From Anthostomella pinea (taxonomy: Eukaryota > Ascomycota > Sordariomycetes > Xylariales > Xylariaceae): a DNA stretch of 64,000 bases. The stretch is from contig CAUWAG010000020.1 of NCBI GenBank assembly GCA_963556695.1, positions 868,001 through 932,000 of the forward strand, written 5' to 3'. The notes under the pieces were generated by a model, which was given only the letters and a program-made list of their open reading frames with translations, had not been told where the DNA came from and did not search any database. Positions 14,157-32,670 of the stretch are shown here, piece by piece (positions within the stretch are counted from its first letter, which is position 1; each line of letters opens with the position of its first letter). The position numbers and the translations under genes are program-made.

Positions 14157-15012
14157 CTAAACCACTAGATCCTCTGCTGTGATGACGCTATCCCCAAATA
14201 TCACCATGGTGCTTAGCGGTGGCTGGTTGAAGTCTGCCTCGCCACGCTCCGAGATACCGTGCAATGCATAATTGACTTTGTCCGGGCTCATCATCGCGCT
14301 CAACTCCTGTTCCATGAAGTCGTAGAAGTAGTAGAGCATTTGAGCCCATGTTTTCTTCGAGCTGGAGAATAGCATGTCCTTGTTAGGGTCATTTTCCACA
14401 TCGCCCTTGTCGAGCACCAGCTTGACGTTTTTGGGCTTGATGCCGAGCCTCTTGGCTTCGTTGAACGCAGCTTGTATGTTGGCGAGCTGATCCTTCCAGT
14501 GGTTCTGCCAATCATATTGAGGGTCGACATGCGCTAGAATGTGCCATTTCTCCGATGTGCCCCGTGGCTTCATGGTCGCCGCGACTCCCAGGCACGTGTT
14601 CAGACCTGAAGTCCACAGATACTGTCCGGATCTGCTCCTGACCGTTCTTCTACCCACGCCGTATGGATCATAAACTTTGAGGAATCCGTCCCACATTGTG
14701 TTCATGTCGCCATAGGGTCCATAGTATTTTTCGCCCGCTCTCGGTGCTCTCTCAGAGAGTACGTGATTATTTCGATACTGCACCGTCTTGGGGAAGCCAT
14801 CCTGATGGGGACGACTGGCAAGTCTGCTCTACGAGTCAGCTTCCGGAACCGGCATGGCTCCCCGTTCCGAGGAGGTTGGGGGTTGAAACATACATGGTAG
14901 AATTCACAGTATCCCCAGGAATAGATGCCGGAGTTGAAGCGGGTAGCGCGATTGTGACTATAGCCAGAGGGGCTGACAACGCCCAGGCAAGAATGCATTT
15001 GCTGATGTACAT
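14157..15012 (-). CDS. secreted protein with CheD/CNF-like Cys-His motif, copy 1
   Basis: No family recognised with certainty. Two exons, 15012..14894 and 14823..14157, give 261 residues. The joint is phase 2 (AT plus A). Exon 1 encodes a signal peptide of about 22-25 residues (MYISKCILAWALSAPLAIVT). The mature protein has tyrosine- and glycine-rich segments. Around residues 120-150 it has the motif TSGLNTCLGVA, then KWHILAHV 21 residues after the cysteine (counted to the AH histidine). This resembles the T-x-G-L-x-x-C ... A-H-V core of CheD glutamine deamidases. The rest is helix-rich, with DKGDVENDPNKD and LYYFYDFMEQEL. A related protein is encoded at 29434..30083. The deamidase role is inference; a secreted effector or self-recognition protein is equally possible. 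A short inverted-repeat element starts 341 bases upstream. Confidence 0.75.
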
Positions 15013-15352: not shown

Positions 15353-15786
15353 CATGTGTCCAGGATGGTAATAGTTAGCGGTTCCTCGTGACGGTGGCCT
15401 TTAGGCTTGTTAAAAACACGCAAAGTTCTGATTCATAATAATGTAGGGCCAGATGAAGTTCTTGGTATCCGCTCTTCGGTGGGAAAGCTGGGAGGAATGT
15501 CATACAAGTTAACAGGCTTCGATACCAACAGAGCGATGATCATCGCTGGACCCTGGTAGCCTCCGAGAAGTCACTGGGATGGAAGCGACTTTGTCGACCG
15601 AGTGAACTGCTGCCCGCCTACAGCCAATGGCTATGAGTAGTATGCATCCTTGTCGTCCGTCGGTGTCAGTTGACGCTTATTAACCTAGTACGTGGCGATA
15701 ACAACGATAGAACTTTATTCCCATATTTATAGCAGTATATAAATAGGGGTATGGGGCACGCTACTGGTTACCATCCTGGACACCTA
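15353..15786. mobile_element. TA-flanked inverted-repeat element (MITE-like), copy 1
   Basis: The left end reads CATGTGTCCAGGATGGTAAT. The right end, read on the other strand, is TAGGTGTCCAGGATGGTAAC. Both are flanked by TA (15351-15352 and 15787-15788), the target duplication of Tc1/mariner-type elements. No transposase frame is present, so it would be non-autonomous. Internal sequence near the left end (TAGCGGTTC, CAAAGTTCTGAT) is shared with the copy at 30458..31056. The ends are diverged, so the insertion is not recent. Confidence 0.7.
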
Positions 15787-23145: not shown

Positions 23146-26068
23146 TCAGATGATCTCTATGGTAGTAGGCTCGTGGCTTTGAAAATAGCTGAGACCACCA
23201 CAGTTGACAGTGCTCCACGTCGGTTCATCCGATAGGGACTTACTGAAGCCTCTCGGCATTGAGCTGAACACGCCAACGCGAATATACTTGCCAGGACTTT
23301 TAGCTGGATGAACGACAATGCCATAGGCAGCTCGGAGGGCGTCGTTCTCTGTACGAATCCCGTCGCTGGATCGACCAGGCCGATGTCTGCTGACAAAATC
23401 GTCCTCCTCGTTTTCACTACTTGACCTGCTTGCGTTGGCTGGGCTTCTTATCATTTGATCGGGTCCCCCTTCGAATTCTCCGCTCTCGACTTCTTCGTCG
23501 CTATCAAGCTCTTCGTCGCTATCAAGCTCTTCGTCGCTATCAAGCTCTTCGTTGCTATCAAGCTCTTCGTCGCTATCAAGCTCTTCGTCGCTATCAAGCT
23601 CTTCGTCGCTATCAAGCTCTTCGTCGCTATCAAGCTCTTCGTCGCTATCAAGCTCTTCGTCGCTATCAAGCTCTTCGTCGCTATCAAGCTCTTCGTTACT
23701 ATCAAGCTCTTCGTCGCTATCAAGCTCTTCGTCGCTATCAAGCTCTTCGTCGCTATCAAGCTCTTCGTCGCTATCAAGCTCTTCGTCGCTATCAAGCTCT
23801 TCGTCGCTATCAAGCTCTTCGTCGCTATCAAGTTCTTCGTCGCTATCAACTTCGTCCAAAATGCTTCCGAGTAGCACCAGTGAAAGACCGTGGCAGGGTT
23901 CCTCCTCCCCAGCAGGTAACCAATCTAAGAGGACCCTGGCAATGCATGCTCGACCGCTGCGGACCTCCCATATATTTGGGTCAAATTTGAGTGGTGTTGA
24001 GATGGGCAAGACTACCCCTGTGAAAACCAAGCTCCCACCAGATACCTGGCCGAACGGGTTGGCGCCAGGGACGAAGGTCTTCGCCTCGATGTTTCCTGAT
24101 TCGTCTCGAACCTCACTAGAGCAGAACGTGCCGAACATTCGATCCGCCAAGGATGGGATATGCATAATCCCTTCGGCGCGGCTCGCCCAACTCCACGACG
24201 GCGCAATATACAATGCCGGCGATGGATTCGATCATCGGGCTTCTCCTCCTCCCTAGTTCTCCGTTCGTCCACGGCATGGGATACAAAGGCTTCTCGGCTG
24301 CCCAGAACAAATCACGATGTATATGGGCTCTGCGTAGTCCTGCGAGGTACTGATCTGGTTGGTTTTCCAAAGCAACTCGTGCTAGGCCTGCGATTGCTGG
24401 GAGCTTGTCCGAGGGATTGGAGAACTCTCGCCACGTGAAAGATGCTATATATTCAAAGCAACCCCGAAACACTATCAGTATCAAGATTCCGAATGAGATC
24501 GCTCGTAATTGGCTCGTGCAAAGTGGGCAAAGGGCTTATTTCATTGCTTTCAGACCATCTGGTATCGTTGGTCCATAAGTGCAATTTGCCTTTACCGAAT
24601 ATGATCACGCGCCTTGAGAGTTTGAGTTCCTGATACGCCCAACCGCGGGTATACAGACGGCAGTAGTGGAGACCATCATGCAAGAGATCATCTCCTTTCT
24701 CTTCGTGATCCCGAATAAGTGTCTTGGAGTGCCATCGAATATCATATGTACCGCAGACAGTAGGATCAATTTTCGAACGGAACTTGACGCGCGTTCCGTC
24801 GTCCCTTGATAGAAGTCCACTTTGGCAGGAGTCAGAAGAAGCCGCACATATAGTGGCAAACGCGCACTGATAGATCGAAGCCATCTCGGCGGACTGCCTC
24901 TCCCAGTCCTCTTTATCGCCTTGGATGATGCAGAGGGAGTCGATCCACCTTTTAGAAGACTAGAGTCAGAAATTATTCCTTCTTCTCTTGCACTTTTTTG
25001 GGAGAGGGGTGGGGAAAGAAACAAGAACTCGTAATGCGTGTCTCGGGAGCAATGGCTCCTTACGCAGGCTAGAAGAGAAACTTCGCCCACAAGACATGGC
25101 GATGGCGATGATTAGGGGCGGGGGGAATAAGAGACTCTAAAATGTACATACAGATAGCGTATGCCTAACGCTCTCGTAACCCTGATAGCGTCTTGTATGA
25201 TTGGAGAAGCTGTGGTTATATTGAACCCCTGAACTCGGTCCTGGAGAGTGGCTTTCTCAGTCTTGAACTGCGCTTTGGCATCTTCCGGATTGCCCCAACA
25301 GTAACTCAGGGCGAGGTACTGGACATTGCTTGTGGCCCTGCTCGGATCAGTGACGCCCAGCCGACACATGTTTCTTCCTGTGCACCCTACTCGATGAGAC
25401 GGCAAGGCCTGTACAAGGGAAGAGGGTCCTCCACCGCGGCTTCTTTTTCCAAACAGTGTCGGAGCATTTCGATGTTCTCCGAGCACAGCGTCTCATCTTT
25501 CCGGGCGGGCTCGATTTTAAGCCATTCGCTACATCGTCCTAGGCTCACTATCAGATGTGACCGGTGTGGTATGCCTCGCTACGGCCCAGGTGTGAAGACC
25601 CTGATCGCAGCGACGTGAACAGCTTGTTCGATGATCTGCTTACCAGGAGCACCGTCGATAGTAAATAACAGCTTCTCTCCCTTTCCTATCTTTCCTTTAG
25701 CATTGCTTGTTTCTTTTCACCCCGCGGTTCAGAGCTCACCTTGTTTTCTCCAGGTTTCCAGAAGCAGGACAGCCACGGGACGGGCCAAGGCACGAGCATC
25801 ATTCAAGTCGTATCTGAGGTATACGCGAATTGTTTTCCACCTGAAACCACATGCTTGAATGGCTGTGTACATAGCGGAGCAGAAGGCGCGCCCACTGTTC
25901 GCCGAAGTGGAAAGGACTGGCAAATCTGGCAACGTCTATCAGTTCGTAATCGAGCCACCGGTTTATCACTCCCCCCGTATATGCGAGATGGCTTGCTGCA
26001 TGTTGCACGGACTCCTCGCACCCATAAGCCGAATCATCAAACTCCAGTACTTTGCATCTCTCGCACAA
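23146..26068 (-). pseudogene. HET-domain gene, frameshifted, with acidic repeat insert
   Basis: HET proteins trigger heterokaryon incompatibility, a cell-death response when unlike strains fuse. The order of family landmarks is complete on the minus strand: an N-terminal MCERCKVLEFDD block (26068), PDLPVLSTSANSG, an intron about 25739..25539, CSEWLKIEPA, YLALSYCWG, a second intron 25151..24949, WIDSLCIIQGDKEDW, AEMASIYQCAFATICAASS, SDKLPAIAGLA, YIAPSWSWAS, NPFGQVSGGS and a C-terminal end at 23146. The frame breaks at four places, near 25933, 25385, 24465 and 24255, each changing frame without a plausible intron. I therefore call it a pseudogene; sequencing indels in this region are the alternative. 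Between LSLVLLGS and GKYIRVGVF, where related proteins usually have a short loop, about 120 residues of (LDSDEE)n are inserted. Confidence 0.8.
23490..23849. repeat. 20-copy 18-bp tandem repeat encoding (L)DSDEE
   Basis: Twenty nearly identical units of CTATCAAGCTCTTCGTCG (plus strand). On the HET strand they read as LDSDEE hexapeptides. Two units have N in place of D (SNEE), from one base change each. Copies differ by very few bases, which points to recent expansion by slippage or unequal exchange. Because the unit is a multiple of three with no stop, other frames on both strands also stay open here; those are artefacts. Confidence 0.97.
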
Positions 26069-27952
26069 AGTCGACGGGGTAGGTGTTGGATATCATAGTA
26101 GGTCCAGACGAGGCCTTCGGGGCTGAATGCGCTAATGGGTTTGGTTTGAGGGCAGTCAGCCGACCCTCAGGCCACCAGGATTCTGGCACCATTATCGTAT
26201 GATGATCTGGTCACTCTGATGGCACACCTATACATATATATGGGGGCTTCTCCCCCAGAGATCTTCTTCTCTTTTCCTTTCAATACTAGAACGGTTTGAA
26301 ATCTCACAGTAGGTAAGCTGCTCATACTGGGGTGGTGCTGAGAGAATGTCTCATGTGCTCATGCGATGGTGAGGAGCGACACATAGAGTAACAATATAGA
26401 GCGAAGAAAAGTAGAGTCTGGAACCTGTGAGGACCTTCTGCGATGATGTATTTGGACATAACCGAGAGCGAGGCTGGGGAACGCGGGGTCCAAGGTGCAA
26501 ATATTCGCAGTTGCTCCATTGTTCCAATCCATGTTGGCTGAGTAAGGTAAAGTCGCATAAGCGGATCGACTTGATTGGTCCTTAAACGCATACTTACAGC
26601 TGCGGATGTGTGTCAGCAAAGAATGTGACCGTGATGACATAACGAAGATGAATTCACCTTTCAACGGGTCAAGTCTTCCGCGAGGATTCAATCCAAAGTA
26701 GAACTTCTCTGGGGGTGAAGGCATGTTGTCTTTCTCAAGAAGCTCAAGACCGTCTTGCCCCCTTCATGATGTTCAAAGGCCAATGGCACTGATTATTTTC
26801 TTAGACTACAATGTGCACCATGCTCTAGGAACAGAGTGCACTAAAGGTGTCATCAGTTGCAGACCTCCCTTGTCTTATCCGTGAGGTCCGTACAGTTTCT
26901 CTTGGACGTTGTACTGATCGAGCTGGCTGGAATATAGCTCCGGACCTTTACCGTCATGTCTCCCCACAGCCGACAACAACTCATGAGCGGGGAGTCAAGA
27001 ATACCCACAAATGCAGATCTCATGCTCGGCATGGAAGATGATAGATCTGCAGGGTCCTGAACTTGTCAGTCTGCAAGTCCGCCTTCTGACCGACACCTGC
27101 CTTGGCCTTCTACCCACACGCACGGCTGGCACGTTCACCGCCATAAATAGTCAGGTGTGATCCAGCTCCGATCAGGCAATGGGTTGAATGTATTCCATCG
27201 ACCCTCATTTTACCTGGACATGCCATGGCCCGGGGCGGTTCGGTTATGGAGACCGGCTATCTCGGCCCATGGTGCTAATCACTCTCTCCTTCGGGACGGC
27301 CCATCTCAGGGACCTCGGGAGCCTCATGACAGGGTTCTGTAGGTCGCCAAGAGCCTTAACGAGCGGAACGACCCTTGTCCAGCTGAAAGATAGAGCCGAA
27401 AGGGGAAGAATATTGGGACGAGCGGTTTGGCACCACATATCTGACAACTGCCAAGCGGGCGGCGTAGTCTTCAACTCGAATCATCGTTGGCCACACTTGC
27501 AAGTTTGACGTGCGGTGACTTGCATCATACTTTAACATGCGCTGCGCGCATTGGTGGTGATGTGAGTCCGACGCGGAGGAGGTGATGAACCCGAGAAATG
27601 GTCTGAGCGAGGCGGCAGAAGACAATGGCTACAGAGGGATCTTCCGACATCAGACGACGTCGTCCTGTCTTGGCGGCATAGTTCCAGTGGATCGGAGGGG
27701 CGTCACTCGCATTGTACGGAGGGTCACTGTATGATTGGCATGTATCACAGGCACAAAGGATTACAGAAGTGCAGTGCATCATCCACAATCAACGTTTCGC
27801 CATGCGCTGGGCATTTAAGGAGGGGAGAGGGGACTTTTCCCAAACCAAACTACCTACCTACATTTCACTTGTCCTCTGCAGACTGGACTTCCACCCCTAC
27901 TGCTCCGGACAGCGAGCGATCTTGCACCAAAGCAAAGCACCACGACTTCACC
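26069..27952. other. gene-poor spacer with a TATA/leader block
   Basis: No intact gene seen. Near 26230-26320 there is CATATATATGGGG followed by a CT-rich stretch and TTTGAAATCTCACAGTAGGTAAGC, which looks like a core promoter plus leader with a GTAAGC donor. Nothing convincingly coding follows on the plus strand. The last two thirds of that leader recur at 33733-33766. Minus-strand frames at 26322-26724 show an MPSPPEKFYFGLNPRGR-type start and a possible intron, but no family. The last part is the promoter and leader of the WW-domain gene. Confidence 0.45.
26284..26324 (+). promoter_or_regulatory. leader-like block shared with 33733-33766
   Basis: TTTCAATACTAGAACGGTTTGAAATCTCACAGTA matches TTCAATAGAACACTTTGAAATCTCACAGTA at the second site with one 2-base gap and two substitutions. 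A TATATA element lies upstream of both. This suggests a duplicated promoter/leader from a gene family whose coding parts are no longer recognisable here. Confidence 0.4.
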
Positions 27953-29027
27953 ATGTCGTTCTTCAAGAAACTGGCCGACAAGGTCGAGGATTTCCTAGAC
28001 GACGATAAGGACAAGAAGAAGCAGGAAGAAGTACAGAGTCAGCCTCAAGGCCAAGGTCAGCAAGGGACTGTCACATCAAATTTCACTTCCAGCATTGCTT
28101 ACCAGACCCCAGAGCACGCACGCGGCTACGGCGACAACTACCGACAAGGCGGCTACCCCCAACAATACCAGCAGCAGCAGCAACAGCAACCTCAAGGCTC
28201 ATACTACGGAGGCGCCCCTCCCCCGCAAGGGCCTCCCGCCCCGTACGGCGCGCCGCCTCCGATGCCACCGGGCTGGAACGCGCAGTGGGATTCGAATCAG
28301 AACCGCTGGTACTACATCGAGCAGTCGACCGGCCGCTCGCAGTGGGACCCGCCCGCGACCTTTGGCCAGCCGCCCCAGGGACCCTACGCGCCGCCCGTCG
28401 GAGGCCCGCCCGGCCAGGTGCCGTACACGACGGGTCACGGCGACGGGTTCCGTGGCGAGAGCGGCACGTACTATAGCGGCCAAGGCGGCATGCCGCCGAC
28501 GGAGCACCAGGGACAGTATGGCGGGGATGACAGGGCATACGGACAGGGCGGGGAGCAGCAGAAGGAGAAGTCGGGCTCGGGCAAGGCGTGGGCGATGGGG
28601 GCAGGTGGGCTGGCTGTGGGCGCTATTGGCGGTGCAGTCATTGCGCATGAGCTGAGTATGTTACTTGTGATGCTGGAACCCTTCCGCTTCTCACTGATTG
28701 TCAACTTCTTCTACCTCCGACTTCCATGCTCGACACCCAAAAACATCCCCTCGAAATATGACTTGCTGACAGGGTGGGCGGTCTTGTACAGCCGAAGACT
28801 CCGACGAAGAGCACCACGCAGCCGCCCAGCCCGCCTACGTCGCCCCGCCGGCCGAGTCGTCGTACCAGCCGGCCCCCAATCCCATGTACGCCGAGCCGCT
28901 GCCTGACGAGACCGCCAGCGGCAGCTCAGTGTCGAGCAGTGACCGCGAGGAACTTGAGGAGCGGCGCGAGGAGCTGCAGGAGGCGCAGGAGGAGTATGAG
29001 GAGGCCTACGAGGAGACCTATGATTAG
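27953..29027 (+). CDS. WW-domain protein with glycine-zipper segment
   Basis: Two exons, 27953..28655 and 28792..29027, give 312 residues. The start is the MSFFKKLADKVEDFLDDDKD amphipathic block with a CACCATG context. The middle is Q-, G-, Y- and P-rich low complexity. A WW domain lies at about residues 103-133 (LPPGW-type start PPGWNAQWDSNQNRWYYIE, ending SQWDPP), with both signature tryptophans and the final proline. WW domains bind proline-rich peptides. Near residues 212-236 is a glycine-rich hydrophobic stretch (AMGAGGLAVGAIGGAVIAHE), which fits a glycine-zipper membrane segment. The exon 2 tail is acidic with an EELEERREELQEAQEEYEEA helix. The intron ends GCTGAC...TTGTACAG and the joint is phase 1. 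The cellular role is not evident. Well expressed by appearance: high GC3 and biased codons. Confidence 0.85.
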
Positions 29028-29433: not shown

Positions 29434-30083
29434 TCACCGTACATGCATGTGCTGCAGCTCAACAGGCAGATAGGAGGTACCCAGGCAGAGGGAACAGAAG
29501 TAGTTAATTTTGCCGCCGACGAGATCCTTGAACTTGCTGCGAACGTCGTTGATGGTCTCCTGCAGCATCTCCTTCATGTCATCCTCCCAATCTTCCGCGT
29601 TGAGCGATGAGACATCGACAGCCGTGAACCACCCTTCTTGATTCTCGAGGTCCATTTCTTTGACCTTCTTCTTGAAGGTCTCGAACTGGTATATGATGTC
29701 GTCCAAATGCCACTCCTCGTCTTCCTCGGACAGGTGGCCCAGGACACGATCCCACTTGTCATCGCCATGGTGAATTTGCTTGCCCATGATCAGAAGGCCG
29801 ATGCATGTGTCGAGGCCGCTGGTGGAAATCGCTTTGCCCCTTGTCCCTCCGGTCTTGCCCATGGGTACTTCTTCGGCACGAGCATGAAGAGACAGCCCAG
29901 TCTTGCTGGTGCCGTCACGCTCGATGACACTCCTGTAACGATGGTTAGGGATGGTACATGTTGCTGGACAGGGCGTGTGCCGGCTTACCTGATATCTCGC
30001 GGAGCTTTCGTGAGCTCTGTTGTAGCGGACGTGGCAAGCAGAGCACTGACAACAAATGTCGACAAGTTCTTCGTGAAATGCAT
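29434..30083 (-). CDS. secreted protein with CheD/CNF-like Cys-His motif, copy 2
   Basis: Distant paralogue of the gene at 14157..15012. Two exons, 30083..29989 and 29932..29434, give 197 residues. Exon 1 is again a signal peptide (MHFTKNLSTFVVSALLATSA), and again the joint is phase 2. The intron ends CCTAACCATCGTTACAG. The core motif is TSGLDTCIGL with KWDRVLGHL following; the histidine lies 23 residues after the cysteine. An acidic helix-rich part follows (EEDEEWHLDD, FKKKVKEM). The C-terminal YFCSLCLGTSY segment has no match in copy 1. This copy lacks the tyrosine/glycine-rich region between the signal peptide and the motif that copy 1 has, so it is shorter. The CheD/CNF resemblance is a motif-level inference. 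The same element family sits 375 bases upstream. Confidence 0.75.
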
Positions 30084-30457: not shown

Positions 30458-31056
30458 CAGGTGTCCAGGATGGTAATGGTAAGCGGTTCTACGTAACGGG
30501 ACCTTTTAGTTCCGCAAAGTTCTGATCTATAATTATACGTAATGGTGATAGATAGAACTTGACGCGATGGGATATTGGACTTTTTCGTTACTTACTGTAT
30601 GTAGGAACTTTCTCGTAACAAACCTATAACCCCTAACATGTAAAACCGCTAACCATTACTATCCTTGCTACCTGTATCTGAGGTGCCGTACTAGAGGATC
30701 CTCTAGTAACAGGTTACCCAATGATAAAACGCGTTCCGTGTTATTCGGCCGACATTCTGGGGAGGGATTACTAGAGGGCCAACGAAAGGAGCTGGCCCAC
30801 GAAAGGAGCTGGCCCACGAAAGGATCTGGCCCACGAAAGGAGCTGCCCCAGCTGAGCCGCATAATAAAGTTCCAAGCCTCTAGTGGGCCTTCTTAATACA
30901 CAATGAAAAGTTCCCATGACGTAAAATTCTATAAAGTTATATACATCTGTGCAGATAATTATAAATTAGAACTCTACGTGTTTTGAGCAGGCGACGTACG
31001 GACCTGAAGAGTTCCAATTATATGGAACCGCTAACCATTACCATCCTGGACACCTG
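30458..31056. mobile_element. TA-flanked inverted-repeat element (MITE-like), copy 2
   Basis: It begins CAGGTGTCCAGGATGGTAAT and ends with the exact complement order (ATTACCATCCTGGACACCTG). TA flanks both ends (30456-30457 and 31057-31058). The inverted repeat extends about 30 bases to AGCGGTTC. A second, diverged right-end sequence (CCGCTAACCATTACTATCCT) lies inside near 30650-30676. The element is therefore probably composite: a short element of about 217 bases plus a second segment that contains the 17-bp tandem repeats. No transposase frame is present. Confidence 0.8.
30784..30851. repeat. four 17-bp tandem repeats inside element copy 2
   Basis: Unit ACGAAAGGAGCTGGCCC, four copies; the third has ATCT in place of AGCT and the last ends in CCCC. 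It lies in the second half of the composite element and is absent from copy 1 at 15353. Confidence 0.9.
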
Positions 31057-31458
31057 TATTGCGAACGTCCCGTATCCATCAGAGTCCTCTCTTTGCTCAG
31101 CATCGTGCCACATAGGATTCTGCTACCTTTTGCGAGGTCACTCCTCGGTGAGCCCGGTTTGAAGTTATTTATACTCGTTTTTCTGTACTCGTCTACCCCT
31201 TGTCACGCTTGGACCTAAGCTGGACAGGCGGTTCGGTTGATCTTTCAGATGAATGAGTATCTGGTCCTCCTTTCCTCTCTTTCCCCATCTTTGTCATTTC
31301 ATCGGCAGAGCCGGTACGCCCTTGTCCTGTATCTCGTCTCGACCTAGTTGCCACTCGCCGTGACACTTATCACCCATCTTCAAGCTACTCTACATCGCAA
31401 CTGCACGTCATCCAGCACATTCGAGCTCTGATAATATCCGTCGCTCGAGGGCATCACC

Positions 31459-32670
31459 ATGAAAGAACCACACTTGCAGTTGTTCAACCCTGTGAACATG
31501 GAGAGGGGCGGATCGTTCCCTCAATTTGCTTTACTGCCGCCAGAGATTCGCATCCAGATATGGAAGCATGCATCACAACGCCACCGCATCATAACCGTGG
31601 GTGTAACGACCCACCGGCGCGGGCTGCAGCGCCCCCGCGCCCACAAGAACCACTTGGGAAAGCCGATAATTGGAGATAGTTGTCGCATCGAGGTGGGAGG
31701 TGCTCAAGTGCTTAGCAAACTGCTAAGAGTAAATCGAGAATCCAGACAGCTCACGCTAGAGGTGCAGCGAGTTCACTTGCCGTGCTTCCTTACAGGAAGA
31801 CTCAAGTCGGAACGAGCAACCTTGCATTTCAACCCCGAACTTGATATCCTTCGGATCACACCATCCACCGACGTAGCTTTCGCCAATTTGGTCTTCGAGC
31901 TCAAGGCCTACGACCCACGCGACGTCGGCCTGCTAAGGTTGGCAGCAGATTTCAACAGCCTCGTACGCATTAGTCAGGTCGAACCCGAAAAGCTTGATCA
32001 GCATATGCAGAGCGCGTTCCGGTCGACCTTGATACAAGTAGAGGAGGTGTTCTTCTGTGTGATCGAACCTACCGGACGGGCCTTTCTAGGCCCCTTGAGC
32101 GGGATCCCGGCGGCAAAGGGTGTGTGGTTCAACCGATCCTATCCGATCCTCGCGGCAACGCCGACCTTTGACCTCATAGCACGAGATCCTCGCCCCATTT
32201 GCGCAGACCTGTGTCGGGTTTTCGCGGGGACCGGCGATCCGCGCAGAATGGCTATGGTTTGGAGCGAGACCCTCAGCAACTGGAATATCCAGCAGCCAGG
32301 TCGACAGGCCCGCTGTAGATACCTCTTAGCCATCGAACGAGGGGAACACCGGGGTAATAACATTGCCTGCCGTCAAGATGCTGAAGATTGGCTTCAGTTG
32401 GAGGACAGGGCGTGGACTAGGAGACAGCGGAAGTACGAGAAACATATACTCAGGTGGGGAGGAAATGTTCCAGTCGAAAGTCCTGACAAGCTGGAGAAGG
32501 CCTCAAGGCCTGCTGTGGGCTTCTGGCTCTTCCCTCTCGAGGCTCTCGGGCCACTACCGAAGGACGAACCCCACGGGGGAAATATACAATTCTTCACGAA
32601 ACAACTGAGGAACATGGCAGGGTACTGGCCAGAACTTGGATTGGCAAGTTTGCCTTTAAAGGGGTGTTGA
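31459..32670 (+). CDS. 2EXR-domain protein
   Basis: Single-exon gene of 403 residues. The N-terminal FPQFALLPPEIRIQIWKHA block (about residues 20-38) is the hallmark of the fungal 2EXR domain, which is often found in expanded, lineage-specific families. LSKLLRVNRESRQLTLE (about residues 90-106) is the second conserved part, with a diagnostic N-R-E-S-R. The domain resembles an F-box and is suspected of protein interaction, but no function is established. The rest is mixed alpha/beta with aromatic C-terminal segments. No signal peptide is seen. The context is the composite element upstream and decayed sequence downstream. The start at 31459 has an ACCATG context; an in-frame ATG also occurs at 31498. 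Confidence 0.8.
   Translation: MKEPHLQLFNPVNMERGGSFPQFALLPPEIRIQIWKHASQRHRIITVGVTTHRRGLQRPRAHKNHLGKPIIGDSCRIEVGGAQVLSKLLRVNRESRQLTLEVQRVHLPCFLTGRLKSERATLHFNPELDILRITPSTDVAFANLVFELKAYDPRDVGLLRLAADFNSLVRISQVEPEKLDQHMQSAFRSTLIQVEEVFFCVIEPTGRAFLGPLSGIPAAKGVWFNRSYPILAATPTFDLIARDPRPICADLCRVFAGTGDPRRMAMVWSETLSNWNIQQPGRQARCRYLLAIERGEHRGNNIACRQDAEDWLQLEDRAWTRRQRKYEKHILRWGGNVPVESPDKLEKASRPAVGFWLFPLEALGPLPKDEPHGGNIQFFTKQLRNMAGYWPELGLASLPLKGC

What the first reader, a model, noticed from the sequence alone, without database searches (positions are those of the whole stretch)
14157..15012. Secreted Cys-His protein resembling CheD/CNF deamidase core (copy 1)
Seen: a signal-peptide exon, then TSGLNTCLGVA and, 21 residues after its cysteine, LAHV. 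Known: CheD-type glutamine deamidases share T-x-G-L-x-x-C and A-H-V with a comparable order, and CNF/BLF1-type deamidases also use a Cys-His pair. Inference: a fungal secreted deamidase-fold protein, possibly an effector or competition factor. I know of no described fungal family with this combination.
Basis: partly seen in the sequence, partly recalled or inferred. Interest (0 to 1): 0.8.

Follow-up and report, generated by a model that had tools for sequence, protein, structure and literature searches.

The report
Fungal secreted CheD-fold enzyme family
A pine- and lichen-associated fungus carries about eleven diverged, apparently secreted proteins that look like a fungal branch of the bacterial CheD / CNF1 protein-deamidase fold, possibly a new kind of fungal weapon or signal enzyme, though no activity has been tested.

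Summary
Copy 1 is a two-exon gene on the minus strand (15012 to 14157, 261 aa, signal-peptide-like first exon); copy 2 is at 30083-29434. Both belong to a family of at least 11 diverged genes in the Anthostomella pinea genome. Three protein-database searches, limited to relatives sharing short exact words, found only A. pinea entries.

Verdict: the CheD/CNF1/YfiH-fold reading is supported at family level. Copy 1 itself gave no usable model, and copy 1 with its nearest paralogue alone matches CheD only weakly. Deamidase activity, Cys-His geometry and an effector role are inferred, not shown. Two members lack the His; Cys-His spacing is 21-25 against 17 in CheD.

The parts
14894..15012 (-). copy 1 exon 1: start codon and signal-peptide-like stretch
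   Evidence: reading; first exon and donor resemble those of paralogue L002
14824..14893 (-). copy 1 intron (phase 2, 70 nt; acceptor may instead be at 14815, 79 nt)
   Evidence: GTATGT donor, CTGAC branch-like site, CAG acceptor; frame kept
14157..14823 (-). copy 1 exon 2: N-terminal stretch and predicted CheD-fold domain, with stop
   Evidence: open frame; homology to the family
14610..14612 (-). Thr at Cys-6 (same spacing as CheD Thr21 to Cys27)
   Evidence: CheD triad from PMC7022378 passages
14592..14594 (-). putative nucleophile Cys of TSGLNTC
   Evidence: present in 11 of 11 members
14529..14531 (-). putative catalytic His of LAHV (Cys+21); a second His lies at 14541-14543 (Cys+17)
   Evidence: His at Cys+21 to +25 in 9 of 11 members
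29989..30083 (-). copy 2 exon 1: signal-peptide-like stretch
29434..29932 (-). copy 2 exon 2: same domain (TSGLDTCIG ... LGHL), with stop
15354..15785 (.). dispersed inverted-repeat element (MITE-like), nearest end 342 bp upstream of copy 1
30459..31055 (.). same kind of inverted-repeat element, nearest end 376 bp upstream of copy 2

Best explanation
[quoted passage not shown] Shown: gene structure, family, Cys-x-Gly in all 11, Thr at Cys-6 in 8 of 11, His in 9 of 11, profile similarity to CheD, CheD-like fold of one paralogue model. Inferred: after removal of the signal peptide the Cys thiol, activated by the His that the Thr orients, attacks a side-chain or N-terminal amide (Gln or Asn) of a protein outside the fungus or in another organism's cell, releasing ammonia. 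The diverged copies would reflect different or fast-changing targets, in competition or host interaction.
Against: One of 5 models was usable, of a paralogue; its residues 111-114 beside the Cys are below pLDDT 50, and the CheD alignment (model range 58-241) takes in low-confidence residues. Copy 1's own model has pLDDT 34 and no superfamily chain among the 50 rows shown. Foldseek gave no significant hit (best E 0.13, a RadC). No member scanned, nor the consensus, hits CheD in Pfam or NCBIfam. The CheD profile match comes from the stretch up to and around the Cys; the part after it alone scores 10.8. It is carried by L029/L030 (probability 36) and L016/L027 (25); copy 1 with L002 gives 3.3, copy 2 0.2, L005-L009 1.4. 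A family HMM scored 1 of 13 CheD sequences clearly (17.4 bits), the other listed ones 0 bits or less. An earlier 7-member profile gave probability 6. His lost in 2 of 11, Thr-6 absent in 3 of 11, spacing 21-25. No activity, expression or target data.
Confidence: 0.66

Rival explanations
1. Same fold, different chemistry: an N-terminal amidase like NTAN1, a YfiH-like enzyme acting on small molecules, or another hydrolase, rather than a Gln deamidase.
Against: The motif and profile resemblance tested is to CheD; NTAN1 and YfiH profiles were not compared.
Confidence: 0.3
2. Secreted CheD-fold pseudoenzymes: the fold is kept as a binding scaffold, without catalysis.
For: His absent in L002 and L008, Thr-6 absent in three members; low identity, 15-50 percent to copy 1 among the six aligned.
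Against: Cys and Cys+2 Gly in 11 of 11 and His in 9 of 11 while the rest diverged.
Confidence: 0.2
3. Chance motif: an unrelated small secreted alpha/beta protein whose thin alignment lets AlphaFold2 settle on a familiar fold.
Against: Sequence profile and model point to the same superfamily, and CheD, NTAN1, YfiH, BLF1 and CNF1 chains fill all ranks before the first unrelated chain; the incoherent hits of the poor copy 1 model show what chance looks like.
Confidence: 0.15
4. A relative of the XopAK/HopK1 C-terminal effector domain that reached the fungus.
For: XopAK is the only NCBIfam match of the family consensus (E 0.018) and of P0002 (E 0.045), with the Cys at about model position 63-64 as I count it from the two ranges.
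Against: 13-14.5 bits against a cut-off of 150; 9 of the 10 members scanned do not match; none of 6 CheD sequences scanned matches XopAK.
Confidence: 0.05

Closest known systems
CheD chemoreceptor glutamine deamidase (Pfam PF03975; 2F9Z)
   Same: T-x-G-L-x-x-C with Thr six before the Cys, an upstream VxhGxhk strand, His on the following strand in an A-H-V/I/L context, predicted topology
   Different: Apparently secreted and fungal; no Pfam hit; Cys-His 21-25 instead of 17; no LGSC or G-M-x-H motif
NTAN1 N-terminal asparagine amidohydrolase (6A0E)
   Different: N-degron enzyme with an added C-terminal region (passages)
CNF1 and BLF1 toxin deamidases
   Same: Same fold class, Cys-His pair
XopAK / HopK1 C-terminal domain
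   Same: Weak profile match around the Cys; a predicted deaminase domain is reported for XopAK (PMC11116571, passages)
   Different: Far below the family cut-off; bacterial type III effectors

Membership tests
[quoted passage not shown]
   Copy 1 model pLDDT 34, no interpretable matches.
[quoted passage not shown]
   Copy 1 has Thr-6, Cys and His; family Thr-6 8 of 11, Cys 11 of 11, His 9 of 11. Sequence positions only.
[quoted passage not shown]
CheD (PF03975) | Sequence match over the Pfam cut-off | tested here: not met
   No CheD hit for the 7 members nor for P0002, P0003, L029; L016, L027 and L030 were not scanned. No match in the genome (control rang in 5 of 14 genomes).
CheD (PF03975) | LGSC and G-M-x-H motifs, Cys-His spacing 17 | tested here: not met
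   Family has mostly L-x-[TS]-C and mostly [AGST]-H with spacing 21-25; copy 1 and L002 do have a His at +17.
CNF1/BLF1 toxin deamidases | L-S-G-C motif | tested here: not met
   Copy 1 reads L-N-T-C; motif as given in PMC8960835 passages.
XopAK (NF041406) | 150-bit curated cut-off | tested here: not met
   14.5 bits for the consensus, 13.2 bits for P0002.
Fungal secreted effector | Signal peptide and role in interaction | tested here: inconclusive
   Signal peptides read by eye only; no expression or phenotype data.

The most novel reading that the evidence does not exclude
A lineage-specific, expanded family of fungal secreted protein deamidases with the CheD fold, several of whose upstream regions carry a shared miniature transposon: a eukaryotic counterpart of CNF1/BLF1-type protein deamidation used outside the cell against competitors, lichen partners or the pine host.
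Probability: 0.4. Interest if true: 0.85.

Novelty: new variant of a known kind. Interest (0 to 1): 0.67.

Why it matters
Protein deamidation by CNF1-like enzymes is known from bacterial toxins, bacterial chemotaxis and the N-degron enzyme NTAN1 (PMC8960835 and PMC7022378, passages). A secreted, multi-copy fungal branch would add a reaction type to the fungal secretome and would help to explain orphan small secreted proteins that sequence searches miss. It is directly testable with one purified protein and a Cys to Ala control.

Tried and rejected
Sequence routes without result: Pfam (no hit or only sub-cut-off hits to unrelated families), PHROGs (chance-level hits), solved-structure sequence search, protein database searches (only A. 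pinea entries; copy 1, the 7-member alignment and part of L005 were the only queries), GTDB contigs (112, 113) and viral contigs (114). The consensus' best Pfam match was an apocytochrome F model, E 0.0066, 17.2 bits against a cut-off of 30, taken as chance. No CheD match was found in the genome. The AlphaFold2 model of copy 1 was set aside (pLDDT 34); no CheD-fold chain is among its 50 rows. Foldseek against PDB and BFVD gave nothing at E 0.001 or better. Considered and dropped: papain-like Cys-His enzymes (I saw none among the 50 rows, which does not exclude them). The thought that the shared upstream repeat is a promoter motif of this family was dropped: it is a dispersed inverted repeat with 86 end sites genome-wide.

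The 11-member set was not a blind sample: members came by chained searches. Copy 2 matched copy 1 only at E 0.14 in the window, and L016, L027, L029 and L030 entered at E 0.017-0.1 because the motif was visible, which favours the motif columns. Two later checks back the set: L029 and L030 match at E 1.8e-9 and 5.4e-6, and each subgroup matches the rest at probability 96-98. Without the stretch up to Cys+8, copy 1 with L002 matches the rest only at probability 4.6, P 0.009.

Full report
What was reported.

Check of the observation. The gene is on the minus strand: ATG at 15012, a hydrophobic signal-peptide-like exon, a phase-2 intron (donor 14893, acceptor 14824 or 14815), and exon 2 to a stop at 14157, 261 aa with the longer exon 2. 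Copy 2 at 30083-29434 has the same layout and intron phase, 197 aa. The protein database showed for copy 1 only a 138-aa entry from an internal Met, P0001, without signal peptide and Cys.

The organism.

The family. Chained searches of the whole genome found 11 members: copy 1, copy 2, L002 (C16:2.349 Mb), L005 (C5:0.394 Mb, P0003), L007 (C4:1.752 Mb), L008 (C5:1.936 Mb), L009 (C16:1.564 Mb, P0002), L016 (C5:1.620 Mb), L027 (C7:0.917 Mb), L029 (C2:6.021 Mb) and L030 (C2:1.114 Mb). Some links were weak at first: copy 1 to copy 2 E 0.14; L016, L027, L029, L030 at E 0.017-0.1, taken in on sight of the motif. Profile tests then tied each of five subgroups to the remaining members at probability 95.9-97.9 (P 5e-9 to 5e-13; 0 of 100 column shuffles each); copy 1 with L002 aligns with the other nine over 77 columns, though without the stretch up to Cys+8 the link falls to probability 4.6. 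Identity to copy 1 is 15-50 percent for the six members aligned. L002's frame is broken between two open segments. Copy 1 and L002 diverged with dN/dS about 0.37 over 135 codons and 0.47 over 79 codons of the tail.

Conserved features. Cys and the Gly two after it are in 11 of 11 members, Leu at -3 in 9 of 11, Thr at -6 in 8 of 11 (not L005, L007, L008; L005's exon edge is uncertain), and a His at +21 to +25 in 9 of 11 (L002 has Asn; L008 has Tyr at the matching place as I align it). CheD's triad is Cys27/His44/Thr21 and NTAN1's Cys75/His92/Ser69 (PMC7022378, passages): Thr/Ser six before the Cys, as here; His 17 after it, where this family has 21 or more. Copy 1 and L002 also carry a His at exactly +17, so which His would be catalytic in copy 1 is open.

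Profile comparison with CheD. Thirteen sequences from named plasmid records (six of them checked as CheD) were aligned and compared with the 11-member profile: probability 54.5, P 1.2e-4, 44 gapless columns from a VxmGxxK strand through T-x-G-L-x-x-C. None of 600 column shuffles reached the score 31.4 (highest 22.5), reversed profiles scored about 15, and leaving out any single member gave 28.7-33.9. Shuffles that kept the motif block in place reached at most 21.0 and 27.8 (0 of 200 each). Against: the part after the Cys alone gave 10.8; the match is carried by L029/L030 (probability 36) and L016/L027 (25), while copy 1 with L002 gives 3.3, copy 2 0.2 and L005-L009 1.4; a family HMM scored only 1 of 13 CheD sequences clearly, 17.4 bits; the earlier 7-member profile gave probability 6.

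Another lead. Against NCBIfam the consensus and P0002 each had XopAK as their only match (E 0.018 and 0.045), with the Cys at about the same model position; 9 of the 10 members scanned did not match it, and none of 6 CheD sequences scanned did. A review reports a predicted deaminase domain in XopAK (PMC11116571, passages). This is a hint only.

Mechanism, with steps marked. Secretion: inferred from signal-peptide-like starts. Fold: supported as above. Chemistry: inferred from the Cys/His/Thr set; the most likely reaction is hydrolysis of a Gln or Asn amide. Target and purpose: unknown; multi-copy, diverged and apparently secreted proteins fit antagonism or host interaction.

Literature. Searches for fungal CheD- or CNF1-like deamidases showed me no such report (of I saw the first 20 of 45 listings; the one listing opened, PMC7341126, mentions CNF1 only in passing, passages). 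The library lacks most subscription papers.

Surroundings. A dispersed inverted-repeat element lies 342 and 376 bp upstream of copies 1 and 2. Its 18-base end occurs 86 times in the genome at up to one mismatch. At up to three mismatches 6 of 11 family loci have such an end within about 700 bp upstream of the start or, for L029, of the motif; 1 of 180 letter-shuffled loci did. In the window the only four matches are the ends of these two elements. Such elements may prefer certain regions, so this is not proof of a functional link; a control on random genome stretches was not obtained.

Noticed in passing
window 15354-15785 and 30459-31055: MITE-like inverted repeats upstream of both copies; similar ends upstream of L016 (260 bp, 1 mismatch) and, at 3 mismatches, of L009, L007 and L029.
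   Followed up: partly
L002 1471-2165: Paralogue on C16 whose reading frame is broken between two open segments; the residue matching the LAHV His is Asn.
   Followed up: partly
L005 1312-1746 and P0003: The deposited protein P0003 appears to splice out the SGLSTCVGV stretch that the genome encodes in frame, so it lacks the family Cys.
   Followed up: no
P0002, P0003, L007: Dibasic KR/RR sites between signal peptide and domain suggest Kex2-type processing of a pro-region (read by eye).
   Followed up: no
window 23149-24231 minus: Run of 20 DSDEEL-like units in an open frame; no Pfam match at E 0.001.
   Followed up: no
window 31435-32667 plus: 2EXR family protein (PF20150, E 5e-18); an open frame with a WW domain lies at 27566-28903.
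   Followed up: no
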